Shown piece after piece: positions 1-37,027 of a DNA stretch of 64,000 nucleotides. This DNA comes from Myxococcales bacterium (lineage in GTDB: Bacteria; Myxococcota_A; Polyangia; Polyangiales; Houyiibacteriaceae). The notes below the pieces were generated by a model. It was given only the letters and a program-made list of their open reading frames with translations, made no database searches and had not been told where the DNA came from. The stretch's first letter is position 1; each line of letters begins with the position of its first letter. Location of the stretch: NCBI GenBank assembly GCA_019637115.1, contig JAHBWH010000005.1, forward strand, positions 1 through 64,000, written 5' to 3'. The position numbers and the translations under genes are program-made.

Positions 1-138
1 CCCGACCGCGACGCGCGATGGCGCCCAACCGCGCCGCTTGATGGCGCCCGACCGCGACGCGCGATGGCGCCCGACCGCGACGCTTGATGGCAACCGACCG
101 CGACGCTTGATGGCAACCGACCGCGACGCGCGCTGGGG
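1..138. repeat. 23-bp tandem repeat, six copies
   Basis: Six head-to-tail 23-bp units fill positions 1-23, 24-46, 47-69, 70-92, 93-115 and 116-138, each close to CCGACCGCGACGC followed by a GATGGC-like tail. A degenerate seventh unit may start at 139. The array touches the window edge, so it may extend upstream. The units have no spacers, so it is not a CRISPR array. No gene is visible before the lipoprotein at 393, and the rest of 139-392 holds nothing else I can name. Confidence 0.85.
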
Positions 139-392
139 CTCGACGGCGACGCGCCGAGCCGCCCAACCGCCGCGACGCACTCAGGCCGAGCGCCACGCCA
201 AGGCCGATGGGCGTCATGTCGTGAGACACGTGGCGGCGGGCCACGGCGGGCGCGCGTATGTGGCGTGCTCGCCGCGCAAGCACGTCGTGACACGGCGCGC
301 GCGCACGCACGCTTTGCACGCCCCGACGCGAATCCATGAGTTTTCTCAGCTCGCACGGGCGTTGCTACGTGGAGCGCAGGGGGGTCAGGTCG

Positions 393-31879: not shown

Positions 31880-32695
31880 TCAGATCGAGGCCGTCCGCAC
31901 GTTGAGGTTTCGGTCGACGACCACGATCGACCCCTGGTCGATCGCCCGCCAATCCGATGGCAGCGGCTCGGCGGGCTCGCCTACCACCATCACGTAGCGG
32001 AGCGTCGCCGGCCCGCCGGACGAAGGCGGCAGATCGGGGGGGGGATCGTGCAGCCCGCGGCGCTCGACCACCGCCATCGGCCCGCCGCGCCGCAAGGCAT
32101 AGAGGGCGCGGCCGTTGGTGAGCACGAGGTTCAGCCCGCTCTCGGGTCCGCGGACCTCCGCGACCACGCGGTCGACGAGCGCGACGGCCGAGCGGAGCGC
32201 CGAGATCACGACCTCCTCGTCGACGTCGGGTCGGTCGAGCTGCCCCGCGTCGTGCAGGAAGCTGAGCACGACGTAGAAGAGCAGCTCGCTGTCGGTCGTG
32301 CCCCGCAGCCCGCGCGAGAGGAAGTCGGGGAGCGAGGCGCGCAGCGTCCCGGAGATCGCCTCGAAGCGGCCGATCGTGCCGAGGTGCGCGAAGAGCCAGC
32401 GTCGCATGCGGAAGGGGTGGGTGTTCTGCGTGCGGAAGTCACCGACGGTGGGTTGCCGTAGGTGCAAGACCACGCAATCGGAGACCACGTCGCGCGCGAG
32501 CTGCTGCCAGTCGACCGCGCCGGAGAGCTGTGGGCGCTTCTTATGGAGCACCTCGCCGTTCTGGTAGAAGCCGAGCCCCCAGCCCGTCGGTGTCGTGGCC
32601 GCGGTCGCGCTCGACGCGACCACGGCCCGCTCCTGATAGAGCGCCGCAGCGAGTCGATCCGAACGATTCGCCATGTATCCAACTAGCCGTGCCAT
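31880..32695 (-). CDS. class II glutamine amidotransferase-like protein lacking the catalytic Cys
   Basis: Protein of 271 aa aligning with YafJ/GATase-II (NTn hydrolase) proteins: LHLRQPTVGDFRTQNTHPFRMRRWLFAHLGTIGRF and GTTDSELLFYVVLSFL. The family uses Cys at position 2 after Met removal. Here the N-terminus is MARLVGY, so Cys is replaced by Ala. The glutamine-site HNG is HLG (residues 104-106). It should therefore not release ammonia from glutamine and may be a regulatory or scaffolding pseudoenzyme. GGAGG lies just before the ATG at 32695. Confidence 0.85.
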   Translation of the reverse strand: MARLVGYMANRSDRLAAALYQERAVVASSATAATTPTGWGLGFYQNGEVLHKKRPQLSGAVDWQQLARDVVSDCVVLHLRQPTVGDFRTQNTHPFRMRRWLFAHLGTIGRFEAISGTLRASLPDFLSRGLRGTTDSELLFYVVLSFLHDAGQLDRPDVDEEVVISALRSAVALVDRVVAEVRGPESGLNLVLTNGRALYALRRGGPMAVVERRGLHDPPPDLPPSSGGPATLRYVMVVGEPAEPLPSDWRAIDQGSIVVVDRNLNVRTASI

Positions 32696-33082
32696 GTCGC
32701 CTCCAATGCTCGCTCCTCTCCCTCGTCGTCGCCCTGCGTCACCTCTTCACACTCGGGGTGCTCGCCCGAACCGCGGCCACCCTGCCTGCGGTGCTCCATG
32801 CATCGTGTTCCGTCGTGCTCCGTGTCCGTCGTGTTCCTTCGCGTCCTCCGCGTCGTCTCCGCGTCGCCCTTGTCGAGCGCTACGCCTTCACCGCGCTTCG
32901 ACCAGCCCTGCCGCTCGTGCCTTGGACGCACGAGTCACGCTTCCGTTCACGGGCCGCGGGGCGACGCTTGAAGCTCCGCCGAGCGCCACCCAAGGGTCAC
33001 CCCATCGGCAGCCGCGCGGCGAGGCGGGCCCGAACGTCGTTCTGTCAACCCGCCCGCGGCGGGAACCTTCAGGCTCGACGCC
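32696..33082. other. 387-bp intergenic region with imperfect ACGACGG-type repeats
   Basis: Between the amidotransferase-like gene and the small membrane protein. Around 32800-32870 the minus strand reads as imperfect repeats of the kind ACACGACGGA/GCACGACGGA/ACGCGG. No gene is supported. Long open frames here run through compositional bias. Confidence 0.5.
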
Positions 33083-33229
33083 CTACGTAGGGTCGCCGAG
33101 AGACCGAAGGAGCCGGTCGGTGCGTTGTCGCGCACGCCGCCTCGCGAGGCTCACCCAGACTCGGAACGCCAGGCTCGTCGCCGCCACCACGGAGAGCACG
33201 ACGAGCACCAGCGGAGAGTCGAGGGTCAT
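33083..33229 (-). CDS. possible 48-aa single-pass membrane protein
   Basis: A 48-aa frame opens with MTLDSPLVLVVLSVVAATSLAFRVWV, which reads as an N-terminal membrane helix, and ends in a basic tail (ARRRARQRTDRLLRSLG). It begins 57 nt after the end of the Omp85-fusion gene on the same strand, so it could be co-transcribed. The stop lies in a 12-bp palindrome (CCCTACGTAGGG at 33081-33092). Evidence is only the helix-plus-basic-tail pattern and position; no homologue recognised. Confidence 0.45.
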   Translation of the reverse strand: MTLDSPLVLVVLSVVAATSLAFRVWVSLARRRARQRTDRLLRSLGDPT

Positions 33230-33286
33230 GGTGGCGCCTCACCAGCACAGGATAGCCGTGGCGTCGCCACATCGCCACGGTGCACC

Positions 33287-36013
33287 TCAGAAGTATTGCT
33301 CGAAAGCGATCAGCGTCGTGATGGGCGGCAGGTTCCGCGCGTCCTCACCGCGGATCAGCGGCACCGCGAGGTCGAAGACGAGGACGGCGGGCTGCACGCC
33401 GCCATACTCGAAGTGCGCGCGCAGACCCACACCGACCTCCGCGCCGGCCACGACGTCGCGGCCGTCCGTCGCCGCGAAGACCACGCCCGCCCCCACGAAG
33501 GCTGCGAGCTGGAGCTCCCGCACCCACGCGAGGTGGGCGAGGTTCAGGTCCAGGTCGCCAAACGCCGTCGGCGTGAAGCGCCCCTCGACGACGGCGAAGG
33601 CGCGCGCGCGACCGAGGACCTCCGCGTTCTGGTAGCCCCGGAGCAAGAAGCGACCGCCGAGGCCGGGGCGCTCTCCGGGGAGGGGCTCGCCGATGACCCC
33701 AGCGGCGCCAGCGGCGACGACGATCGCGCCGCGGAGCCCCAGCGGCCGGGTGAGGTTCGCGCGGATCGACGGCGAGAGCGTCCACGAGCGGGTGCCGTCG
33801 TCGCGGAAGACCAAGCTCGACGCCAGCGAGGCCCACGCGGCGCCGCCGTGGCGCGGGTCGAGGAACCACCGCAGCGAGCTCCAGCCGGCGGCGAGCTGGG
33901 CCCCCAGCCGGAAGCCGCCGGGCTCGTCGTCGCGTGCGAACCCGCCGTGGAGTCGATCGAAGTAGATCCCGGGCGCGATGAAGCCACGCCGCACGTTCGT
34001 GTCGCGCGGCGCGCCCAGGCCTCGCACCCAGCGCAGCAGGCCCCCGGTGCTGCGCGGATCGGTGGAGAGTCGCAGGCCGATCGTGTCCTCGGTGTCGTAT
34101 TGGCGCCGCATCGCGACGTCGAGCAGCCCGACCAGCACGCGTTCGGTCGCGCCGACCGCGAGGTTGAACGACTGCACGACCGGCGGTCGCCACGGGTGTC
34201 GCGTCGCGTCGTCGGCGCGCGGATGATCCCGCGCGACCTCGTCGCTCTGCGCGAGGCGCCCGCGCGGGTCGACCAGGACGTCGCGCAGCCGCCCCTCGGT
34301 CTCGACCTCGACGACGCCCTCGGCGCCCGCCCCATCCCAGAGCGCGCTCACGTCGCCGCCGCGCGCGCGGACCCGCACCTCGACGGGCTCGCGCCTCGGA
34401 TCGCCGTCGCGACGGATCCGGATCCGGTGGCGATACCCACCCTCGGGCCTCGAGCTCGTCTCGACCCCCACGAGGACGTAGTTCACCTCGGTCCCTGCGG
34501 CGCCGAGCCACTCGTCGAGCCGCGACGCCATCTCGGGCGCCACGCGCGCGAGCGCCTGCCGCGCGGGCTCGACGCGCTGCAAGAGCGCCTCGCTGAACGA
34601 CGCGAAGCGCTCGTCTCCGAGGGCGTCGCGCGCCATCTCGAGGATCCGACGCCCCTTCGAGCGAGGACGCCGCGCGTAGGCGGGATCGTCGCGGAACGGA
34701 TCCGGCTCCACTATGCCCGCGAAGTAGACGTCCGGGAACGCCGTCTGGGGTGCGTAGAGCAGTTGGTCGATCGCAGGGTGGAAGCCGGCCCACCCCAGCA
34801 GCTCGCGCGCGCTCTGCGCCCGCCCCTGACGTCGCACCTCGTCGAGATCGGCGAGGAGCGCCGCGCGCAGATCCGTCGACCACGCGCGGTCGTCCGGGGG
34901 CTCGAGCGCGGCGGTCGCCGGACAGGAGGCGAGCGCCTGCCGAAAGAGCGCGCGCCGCACCGCGCGGTCGTGGAACGAGCGCGCCGCCTCGTGGGGGAAG
35001 ATCTGGAAGGCGCGATCCGAGACGAGCGTCAGCCCTGGCGCCGTCGAGGCGAGCTCGGTGCGAGAGGGGACGAGCGCGACGACGAAGCTCGACTCGATCG
35101 GCGTCGCGCAGCCCGCCTCGCGGAGCATCGCGAGCGTGCGCGCGGCGTCGGACGCGACCCGCTCGAGCTGCTCGAGCACGTAGACCTCGGTCAGGTCGCG
35201 GATCGACGTGACGCCCGTCGCGTCGGCGGGAGGAGGCTCGGCGAGCGCGCGCGGGGAGACGACGACGAGGCGGTGCCCGTCGGGCAGCGCGCGCTCGTAG
35301 CGGTGGAGGCGCGGGGCGATCACCAGCGGGACGAACTCGTCGCTGACGCGGCGCAGCGTCGTCACACCACGCCCGCTCTCCGCGCCGCCCGGCGCGAACG
35401 CCTCGAGCCCGTCGGCGACGGTCACGCTCACGCGATGTCGCGTGTCACGGATCGTGTCGCCTTCGACGGGGAGGGGATACCACGGCCCCGTCATCGTGAC
35501 GCGGCGGCCGACGCGACCGAGCCGCCCGTAGCGCTCCGGGAGCGCCATCGAGAAACGAACCTCCACCACCCGCGCGCCGGGCGGTACCGCGACGATCAGG
35601 TCGCCGCCGGCGACGTCTCTCCCGCGCGGATCGCCGACCGGCGCGCGCTCCCAGCGCGGCTCGGCGGCGACGCCGTCGACGCTCGAGGCGACGTCCATCT
35701 CCCGCGTATCGACCTCGCGCGGGAAGACCCACCGAGACGAGCGCTGGTCCATCGCCGAGGGGGCGACCGCCAGACGATCGGCGTAGACCCAGAGCCGCAG
35801 CGGCCCCGCCCCTTCGACGGAATAGCGCGCGCGCCCCCGCAGCGCGCCGCGACGGTCGACGCGCGCGACGACGTCGATCGAACGGACCGTGACCGCTGCG
35901 TGGTCACCCCGCGCCCCCACCGCATCGTTCTCCGTGGCGGTCTGCGCGCGCGCCGGGCCTGCGCACACGACGCAGATGCCGACGAGCACAACGACCCAGG
36001 AGCGTCGACGCAC
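33287..36013 (-). CDS. peptidase-M1-like domain fused to Omp85-type outer membrane barrel
   Basis: Protein of 908 aa. GTG start at 36013 (TAGAGG box 5 nt upstream) gives a signal peptide ending PARAQ. The N-terminal part (about 30-240) is beta-rich (LWVYADRLAV, GPWYPLPVEG), resembling the N-terminal domain of M1 aminopeptidases. Around residue 340 sits PHEAARSFHD: a degenerate HExxH where the second His is Arg. From about 590 the sequence becomes barrel-like, with the Omp85 landmark GGRFLLRGY near 785-793 and an FEQYF end. This suggests a passenger exported and displayed by its own Omp85 barrel, as in type V-d systems. Protease activity is doubtful because of the missing His. Confidence 0.7.
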   Translation of the reverse strand: MRRRSWVVVLVGICVVCAGPARAQTATENDAVGARGDHAAVTVRSIDVVARVDRRGALRGRARYSVEGAGPLRLWVYADRLAVAPSAMDQRSSRWVFPREVDTREMDVASSVDGVAAEPRWERAPVGDPRGRDVAGGDLIVAVPPGARVVEVRFSMALPERYGRLGRVGRRVTMTGPWYPLPVEGDTIRDTRHRVSVTVADGLEAFAPGGAESGRGVTTLRRVSDEFVPLVIAPRLHRYERALPDGHRLVVVSPRALAEPPPADATGVTSIRDLTEVYVLEQLERVASDAARTLAMLREAGCATPIESSFVVALVPSRTELASTAPGLTLVSDRAFQIFPHEAARSFHDRAVRRALFRQALASCPATAALEPPDDRAWSTDLRAALLADLDEVRRQGRAQSARELLGWAGFHPAIDQLLYAPQTAFPDVYFAGIVEPDPFRDDPAYARRPRSKGRRILEMARDALGDERFASFSEALLQRVEPARQALARVAPEMASRLDEWLGAAGTEVNYVLVGVETSSRPEGGYRHRIRIRRDGDPRREPVEVRVRARGGDVSALWDGAGAEGVVEVETEGRLRDVLVDPRGRLAQSDEVARDHPRADDATRHPWRPPVVQSFNLAVGATERVLVGLLDVAMRRQYDTEDTIGLRLSTDPRSTGGLLRWVRGLGAPRDTNVRRGFIAPGIYFDRLHGGFARDDEPGGFRLGAQLAAGWSSLRWFLDPRHGGAAWASLASSLVFRDDGTRSWTLSPSIRANLTRPLGLRGAIVVAAGAAGVIGEPLPGERPGLGGRFLLRGYQNAEVLGRARAFAVVEGRFTPTAFGDLDLNLAHLAWVRELQLAAFVGAGVVFAATDGRDVVAGAEVGVGLRAHFEYGGVQPAVLVFDLAVPLIRGEDARNLPPITTLIAFEQYF

Positions 36014-36121
36014 GCCCCCCTCTACCGAGAATCGGCGACCCGCGCCAGGGCACCACGGTTGCCCCCCACAGAACCGCCCCATTCCTGGCGCGCGACGCTC
36101 GGCTCGGGCCATGCTTCCCGC

Positions 36122-37027
36122 GTGAGCGACGAGCCGCGCGAGGTGAGCGACCTCCGGGTCGACGAGTACCTCGACTTCCTGAAGGTCGAGCGCGGCCTCT
36201 CGAAGAACACCCTCGAGGCCTACGCCAAAGATCTGAGCCGCTGGCTCAGCTTCCTCGAACGAGAGGGCGTGAGCCTCGACGAGGCACGTGGCGGGACCGT
36301 CGCCGCGTTCCTCGTCGCGCTCGCAGGGGACGGGGTCTCCGCCCGCTCGCAGGCGCGGTACCTCAGCGCGCTGCGCGGGCTCTACCGTCACCTGGTGCGC
36401 GAGCGGTACCTCAAGGAGGATCCGACGGCGCTCGTCGACCGACCGAAGCTCGGCCAGCGCCTCCCCTCGGTGCTGACGCGAGACGAGGTCATTCGCCTGC
36501 TGGCGGCGCCAGCGGGCGAGGGGCCGCGCGAGGTTCGGGACCGCGCGATGCTCCACACGATGTATGCGGCCGGGCTTCGGGTGACCGAGCTGGTCGACCT
36601 CGATCTGAACTCGCTGAACCTCGAGACCGGCTTCGTCGTGCCCTTCGGCAAAGGAGACAAGCGTCGCGTCGTGCCGCTCGGCGAGTTCGCGAAGGACGCC
36701 CTCCTCGAGTACCTGCGGACCGTGCGACCCGCGTGGGCCTCGCCAGGCAGTCGCGCGGTCTTCCTCACCCACCACGGCCGCCCGATGACGCGCCAGGGCT
36801 TCTGGAAGAACATCAAGCGCTACGCGGCGGCGGCCGGCATCACGAAGGTCGTCTCGCCCCACAAGCTCCGGCACAGCTTCGCGACGCATCTCCTCATCGG
36901 CGGCGCGGACCTGCGCGTCGTGCAGACGATGCTCGGCCACGCCGACATCGCGACCACCCAGGTCTACACCCACGTGACCGGCGAGCGCCTGCACGAGATC
37001 CACGAGCGCCACCACCCGCGCGGCTGA
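36122..37027 (+). CDS. XerC/XerD-type tyrosine recombinase
   Basis: Protein of 301 aa with an N-terminal SAM-like DNA-binding domain (EYLDFLKVERGLSKNTLEAYAKDLSRWLSFL) and a tyrosine recombinase catalytic domain. Catalytic residues: R153 (AAGLRVTEL), H248, R251 (HKLRHSFATHL), H273 (GHADIATTQ) and the nucleophile Y282 (VYTHV). Length and lack of mobile genes around it fit a chromosome-dimer resolution recombinase of the XerC/XerD type rather than a phage integrase. The GTG at 36122 follows a CATGCT box. Confidence 0.9.
   Translation: MSDEPREVSDLRVDEYLDFLKVERGLSKNTLEAYAKDLSRWLSFLEREGVSLDEARGGTVAAFLVALAGDGVSARSQARYLSALRGLYRHLVRERYLKEDPTALVDRPKLGQRLPSVLTRDEVIRLLAAPAGEGPREVRDRAMLHTMYAAGLRVTELVDLDLNSLNLETGFVVPFGKGDKRRVVPLGEFAKDALLEYLRTVRPAWASPGSRAVFLTHHGRPMTRQGFWKNIKRYAAAAGITKVVSPHKLRHSFATHLLIGGADLRVVQTMLGHADIATTQVYTHVTGERLHEIHERHHPRG

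What the first reader, a model, noticed from the sequence alone, without database searches (positions are those of the whole stretch)
33287..36013. Peptidase-like passenger fused to an Omp85 barrel
A long protein with an M1-like N-terminal region, a degenerate HEAAR zinc motif and a C-terminal Omp85-like barrel (LRGY motif). Type V-d autotransporters fuse patatin lipases to such barrels; a peptidase-like passenger would be a new type.
Basis: partly seen in the sequence, partly recalled or inferred. Interest (0 to 1): 0.65.

Follow-up and report, generated by a model that had tools for sequence, protein, structure and literature searches.

The report
Dead M1 peptidase on Omp85 barrel
A myxobacterial outer-membrane protein joins a peptidase-shaped domain that has lost its zinc site to a shortened Omp85-type barrel, so it looks like an anchored non-enzymatic binding protein rather than a secreted peptidase.

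Summary
Sequence profiles align the whole passenger with standalone M1 peptidases (E 2.5e-20; five shuffles and one reversal E 0.2-0.72). A structure model finds M1 aminopeptidases for residues about 39-411 and BamA/TamA for the barrel. The zinc claim fails. HE at the HEAAR position occurs in 2 of 72 full-length relatives, HEAAR lies 7-9 residues from where the HExxH of active M1s aligns, and none of the 72 has an HExxH at that site. It is a family-wide pseudopeptidase in Myxococcota. No POTRA is visible. Both models give 9 strands before the L6 loop; the full-length model gives 14 in all, not 16, starting about where BamA strand 3 should be. The type V-d analogy is weak, because the PlpD passenger has been shown to be periplasmic. 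Most likely this is a periplasm-facing M1-fold binding or scaffold domain tethered to the outer membrane by an Omp85-derived barrel. Function is inferred, not shown. The conserved neighbour, a class-II amidotransferase homologue, has also lost its catalytic cysteine.

The parts
33287..36013 (-). Whole gene: M1-like pseudopeptidase / Omp85-like barrel fusion, 908 aa (GTG start)
   Evidence: 71 full-length relatives besides it
35945..36013 (-). Signal-peptide-like segment, residues 1-23, cleavage site read by eye after ARA
   Evidence: sequence itself; hydrophobic segments at the same place in relatives
34264..35941 (-). M1-like passenger, residues about 25-583: N-terminal saddle-like region, degenerate catalytic-like helical region, C-terminal beta domain shared with standalone M1 peptidases
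   Evidence: hhalign E 2.5e-20 over 502 columns, 6.6e-29 over 555 columns; ERAP1 Z 22.1 over model 16..388, i.e. residues 39-411
34979..34993 (-). HEAAR, residues 341-345: not conserved, not the zinc site
   Evidence: HE in 2 of 72; alignment offset
34943..34975 (-). FHDRAVRRALF, residues 347-357: helix that aligns with the HExxH helix of M1; H348 kept in 67 of 72
   Evidence: helix in the model at mature 319-339
34745..34783 (-). FHPAIDQLLYAPQ, residues 411-423, family signature; D416 in 72 of 72
33290..34231 (-). Omp85-like barrel, residues about 595-908; 9 predicted strands before L6 and 5 after it; last residue F
   Evidence: DSSP; BamA Z 19.7 and 18.8, TamA Z 17.7; aromatic last residue in 68 of 72
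33632..33643 (-). L6-type motif LRGY, residues 791-794
   Evidence: L in 69, R in 49, G in 53, Y or F in 60 of 72
31880..32695 (-). Neighbouring class-II glutamine amidotransferase homologue without the catalytic Cys (MARLVGY...); conserved neighbour, link to function unproven
   Evidence: PF13230 E 7.6e-20; neighbour within 1.5 kb in 20 of 23 testable loci; no Cys at position 2 in 20 of 20

Best explanation
The gene encodes an outer-membrane protein with two degenerate parts. An M1-fold domain descended from envelope M1 aminopeptidases has lost its zinc site. It is anchored by a C-terminal barrel derived from the Omp85 superfamily that lacks POTRA domains and probably the first two barrel strands. 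By the topology of Omp85 proteins, and by analogy with PlpD, the M1-like domain most likely hangs in the periplasm under the barrel. I infer that it uses the old substrate cleft to bind peptides, protein termini or another envelope ligand and works as a tethered receptor or scaffold in envelope homeostasis, not as a peptidase and not as an autotransporter. Shown by computation: the fusion, the M1 and Omp85 ancestry, the loss of the zinc motif, the spread in Myxococcota. Inferred: the periplasmic side, the binding role, the 14 strands (moderate-confidence models).
For: M1 ancestry: 13 standalone HExxH peptidases against the family, hhalign E 6.6e-29 over 555 columns and 2.5e-20 over 502 columns with the 72-row passenger; five column shuffles, one reversal and the family's own barrel give E 0.2-0.72. 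Foldseek: the 50 rows shown are nearly all M1 aminopeptidases; VIA ERAP1 Z 22.1. Loss of zinc site: no HExxH at the site in 72 of 72; the only HExxH is HEEDH in L079, at residue 437 of that row, away from the site. Barrel: F. nucleatum BamA Z 19.7, rmsd 3.0, 251 aligned and Z 18.8, 258 aligned; NCBIfam Omp85_fam in 18 of 21 close members; LRG[YF] motif; aromatic last residue in 68 of 72. Strand count: 9 strands before L6 in both models, 5 after it in the full-length model; 36 of 50 VIA rows start at BamA residue 448-452. Periplasmic side: PlpD precedent.
Against: Both AlphaFold models used only 6 sequences and have mean pLDDT 64; in the barrel-only model the first strands stand at about 40-50 and the last strands are poorly formed. 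Pfam recognises no domain in the window protein and Omp85 in only 2 of 54 mostly distant members at E<=0.01. No topology, binding partner or phenotype is known. The invariant residues (R161, D416, R812, G872 in 72 of 72) could equally mark a new active site.
Confidence: 0.5

Rival explanations
1. Type V-d-like autotransporter: the barrel exports the M1-like passenger to the cell surface, where it acts on extracellular substrates.
For: Signal peptide, N-terminal passenger and C-terminal Omp85-like barrel; historical reading of PlpD as type V-d, as described in PMC11116518.
Against: PlpD's own passenger is periplasmic. The passenger is a folded multi-domain region of about 560 residues. The barrel is predicted shorter than 16 strands and without POTRA. 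The L6 arginine is missing in 23 of 72. The zinc site is lost in all.
Confidence: 0.12
2. The passenger is still an enzyme, with a rebuilt non-zinc active site in the old cleft, for example around H348, D333, R318 and D416.
For: H348 in 67 of 72, D333 in 65, R318 in 62, D416 in 72, R161 in 72: polar residues kept over large divergence.
Against: Model coordinates could not be read, so clustering of these residues is untested. No family match suggests a chemistry. Conserved polar residues also serve folding or binding.
Confidence: 0.2
3. An Omp85-type insertase or assembly factor in which the M1-like domain replaces POTRA domains as the substrate-binding part.
For: Barrel resembles BamA and TamA. 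The M1 fold binds peptide termini (established knowledge of the family).
Against: Predicted loss of the strands equivalent to BamA strands 1-2, of which strand 1 forms the lateral gate (gate role recalled); L6 arginine absent in 23 of 72; the same genome holds five separate Omp85 matches.
Confidence: 0.12

Closest known systems
PlpD / patatin-like Omp85 proteins (PMC11116518)
   Same: Signal peptide, N-terminal enzyme-fold domain, C-terminal Omp85-type barrel in one chain
   Different: M1-like instead of patatin; no catalytic motif; no POTRA visible; predicted 14 rather than 16 strands
Standalone M1 peptidases of the same class (13 among L105-L119 and, in the same genome, G000:C44, L030)
   Same: Colinear over N-terminal, catalytic-like and C-terminal beta domains
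   Different: They have HExxH and end in a short mostly hydrophobic tail; here HExxH is gone and a barrel takes the place of the tail
TAF2 of TFIID (M1-like, non-catalytic scaffold; status recalled)
   Same: M1 fold used without catalysis; the TFIID entry 7edx_B appears as Foldseek row 50
   Different: Nuclear eukaryotic protein with no barrel; analogy only. PMC1199594 (one passage seen) says only that TAF150 has an aminopeptidase domain
BamA / TamA barrels
   Same: Fold and L6 motif
   Different: No POTRA; alignment mostly starts at BamA 448-452, so strands 1-2 appear to be missing
Omp85 'Metallo' (PF00149) and 'noNterm' subfamilies of Heinz and Lithgow 2014 (PMC4104836, section 10 and passages read)
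   Same: Non-POTRA Omp85 proteins
   Different: PF00149 is not M1; an M1 passenger is not among the subfamilies described in that section

Membership tests
Peptidase family M1 | M1 fold and colinear sequence homology | tested here: met
   profiles with controls; structure
Peptidase family M1 | HExxH...E zinc site | tested here: not met
   absent in 72 of 72 at the aligned site; hence not an M1 peptidase, only M1-like
Peptidase family M1 | GxMEN-type exopeptidase motif (GGMEYP in the local active relatives) | tested here: not met
   GGMEYP of the active relatives aligns around TELASTAPG
Omp85 superfamily | Omp85-type C-terminal barrel with L6 (V/L)RG(F/Y) motif | tested here: met
   motif LRGY in the window protein; R792 in 49 of 72 and so not universal
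Omp85 superfamily | 16-stranded barrel | tested here: inconclusive
   14 strands in the full-length model and 9 before L6 in both, at moderate to low confidence; alignment starts at BamA 448-452 in 36 of 50 rows
Omp85 superfamily | At least one POTRA domain (usual, absent in some subfamilies) | tested here: not met
   M1 homology runs to residue about 597, just before the barrel; the segment before the barrel is six strands with two short low-confidence helices
Type V-d secretion / PlpD | Patatin-like passenger | tested here: not met
   sequence profiles and the structure search identify the passenger as M1-like
Type V-d secretion / PlpD | Passenger translocated to the surface | not testable with these tools
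   disputed for PlpD itself

The most novel reading that the evidence does not exclude
A new Omp85 subfamily of Myxococcota: a 14-strand barrel that has lost the lateral-gate strands and POTRAs, fused to an M1 pseudopeptidase whose cleft was rebuilt (H348, R318, D333, D416, R161) into a new binding or catalytic site, and evolving next to a second dead enzyme, a cysteine-less class-II amidotransferase homologue.
Probability: 0.25. Interest if true: 0.72.

Novelty: new variant of a known kind. Interest (0 to 1): 0.5.

Why it matters
It extends the Omp85 scaffold to a new kind of partner domain and gives a case where both halves, peptidase and barrel, seem to have been stripped of their ancestral activity yet are kept across a phylum. 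If the barrel really has 14 strands and no gate, it tests the idea that Omp85 barrels can serve purely as anchors, and it bears on the PlpD debate about which side of the membrane such passengers occupy. It also warns that an HExxH-like string found by eye in a high-GC protein need not be a metal site.

Tried and rejected
Degenerate zinc site at HEAAR: rejected. Active M1-Omp85 fusions in the phylum: none seen. The filter for the 72-row set excluded rows matching HE[LFI][AGM]HQ, which could have hidden such fusions, so I checked: the proteins there with an M1-type HExxH match the profile only up to position 566, never in the barrel.

Profile comparison of the barrel with single Omp85 proteins of the same genome was weak: best E 0.043 with L034, which aligned LGG..IRGY with LGGR..LRGY. 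The sequence-profile search of the PDB gave only Toc75 at E 0.47. The first hhalign and the second place the HExxH helix two residues apart; neither puts it on HEAAR.

Paper searches: searches found nothing. Searches listed papers, none with an M1-Omp85 fusion in the title or the part of the abstract shown. Only PMC4104836 and PMC11116518 were opened in depth, with single passages of PMC12611786 and PMC1199594. Absence from print is therefore limited to these searches of an open-access library. A search outside Myxococcota for distant fusions was not done; the scan of genome contigs reaches close relatives only, 5 loci.

Full report
What is there. On the minus strand, 36013 to 33287 encodes 908 residues beginning with a hydrophobic signal-like segment. 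It is the only copy found in its 8.88 Mb genome. Pfam finds nothing in it; NCBIfam gives Omp85_fam at E 7e-4, far under the curated cut-off. The 1300-aa open frame on the opposite strand (33125-37027) is the antisense of this gene run into a tyrosine-recombinase-like gene (name recalled from the sequence; Pfam gave no match for the part submitted).

Relatives. 19 of 57 related genomes match at E<=0.001. With a profile of 21 rows (A1), 154 of 317 genomes of the class match at E<=0.001. Many of those are partial matches to standalone M1 peptidases or other Omp85 proteins; by my count of the printed table 75 genomes match at E below 2e-40. In an even sample of the phylum 44 of 377 match at E<=1e-10. 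I fetched DNA and kept 71 further full-length proteins, criterion: profile positions 130 or lower to 820 or higher, span over 550, no HE[LFI][AGM]HQ, duplicates dropped. Together with the window protein this is the 72-row set. One row (L024) is from a contig titled only 'uncultured bacterium'.

M1 ancestry. Partial matches led to 13 standalone peptidases with HExxH that share N- and C-terminal stretches with the family. Profile against profile they align over 555 columns, E 6.6e-29. With the 72-row passenger (69 of 72 rows used by hhalign) they align over 502 columns, E 2.5e-20, probability 99.3, while five column-shuffled copies, a reversed copy and the family's own barrel give E 0.2-0.72. 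Among the M1 peptidases of the same genome the nearest is L030 at E 3.6e-4. The AlphaFold model (6 sequences, pLDDT 64.4, pTM 0.45) matches M1 aminopeptidases in nearly all of the 50 Foldseek rows shown (E from 3.8e-16; row 50 is a TFIID entry), and ERAP1 at Z 22.1 over model residues 16-388.

No zinc site. HE at positions 341-342 occurs in 2 of 72 rows (the window protein and L002). The single HExxH in the whole set, HEEDH at residue 437 of L079, is away from the site. The helix of active M1s that carries HExxH aligns with FHDRAVRRALF (347-357). What is conserved is different: R161, P180, D416, R812 and G872 in 72 of 72, H348 in 67, D333 in 65, R318 in 62. The whole family is therefore a pseudopeptidase, or has rebuilt its site.

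Barrel. Residues 586-881 of the model match F. nucleatum BamA at Z 19.7, rmsd 3.0, 251 aligned; the barrel-only model (pLDDT 64.2) gives Z 18.8 over 258 aligned residues, and Foldseek lists BamA and TamA first. Omp85_fam is seen in 18 of 21 close members at E<=1 but in 5 of 54 further ones at E<=0.01; Pfam Omp85 in 6 of 21 at E<=1 and 2 of 54 at E<=0.01. Both models have nine strands before the LRGY loop and the full-length model has five after it. In 36 of 50 VIA rows the alignment begins at residue 448-452 of E. coli-type BamA, whose barrel begins near 424 (recalled), so two strands seem to be missing. OmpG, a 14-strand porin (recalled), also scores Z 17.6. Confidence in the first strands is low, so I treat 14 strands as likely rather than shown. 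No POTRA is visible, since M1 homology runs almost to the first strand. The L6 arginine is absent in 23 of 72.

Topology and function. The 2024 PlpD paper (abstract and Discussion read) shows the patatin domain of the type V-d prototype in the periplasm. With the same order of parts, the simplest reading is a periplasmic M1-like domain. The standalone M1 peptidases end in a short, mostly hydrophobic tail straight after the shared beta domain; here a barrel stands in its place. I infer a tethered binding or scaffold role. No result shows a ligand or partner.

Surroundings. In 20 of 23 loci with enough flank (my count) a class-II amidotransferase homologue lies within 1.5 kb; in 19 it is divergent from the fusion gene, while in the window the fusion gene is inverted relative to both neighbours. 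The homologue lacks Cys at position 2 in 20 of 20 loci: Gly 14, Ala 5, Ser 1. A paralogue elsewhere in the same genome reads MCRLLGF, with the Cys. The role of that Cys is recalled knowledge of the family. The homologue shows no signal peptide by eye, so a direct contact with the barrel protein is not implied.

Prior work. Heinz and Lithgow (PMC4104836, section 10 and passages) list ten Omp85 subfamilies without an M1 passenger. My paper searches found no M1-Omp85 fusion, within an open-access library only.

Verdict. The architecture is real and, as far as these searches go, undescribed. New variant of a known kind, interest 0.5.

Noticed in passing
window 31880-32695 (-): Class-II glutamine amidotransferase homologue (PF13230) begins MARLVGY and lacks the catalytic Cys; the same holds in 20 of 20 neighbour loci, while a paralogue in the same genome (L138) has MCRLLGF.
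   Followed up: partly
window 31880-37027: The fusion gene is inverted between the amidotransferase homologue and the Xer-like gene relative to the 19 other loci with the amidotransferase neighbour.
   Followed up: partly
L085-L097, L103, L104 (barrel L6 region): In one group of relatives the L6 arginine is replaced (LGAY, LSGY, LAGF and similar), so the hallmark of the Omp85 loop is lost there.
   Followed up: partly
window 33125-37027 (+): A 1300-aa open frame is an antisense read-through of the fusion gene joined to a recombinase-like C-terminus; a trap for automatic annotation in this high-GC genome.
   Followed up: no
L105-L119: Standalone active M1 peptidases of the class end in a short, mostly hydrophobic tail just after the domain that in the fusion family leads into the barrel.
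   Followed up: partly
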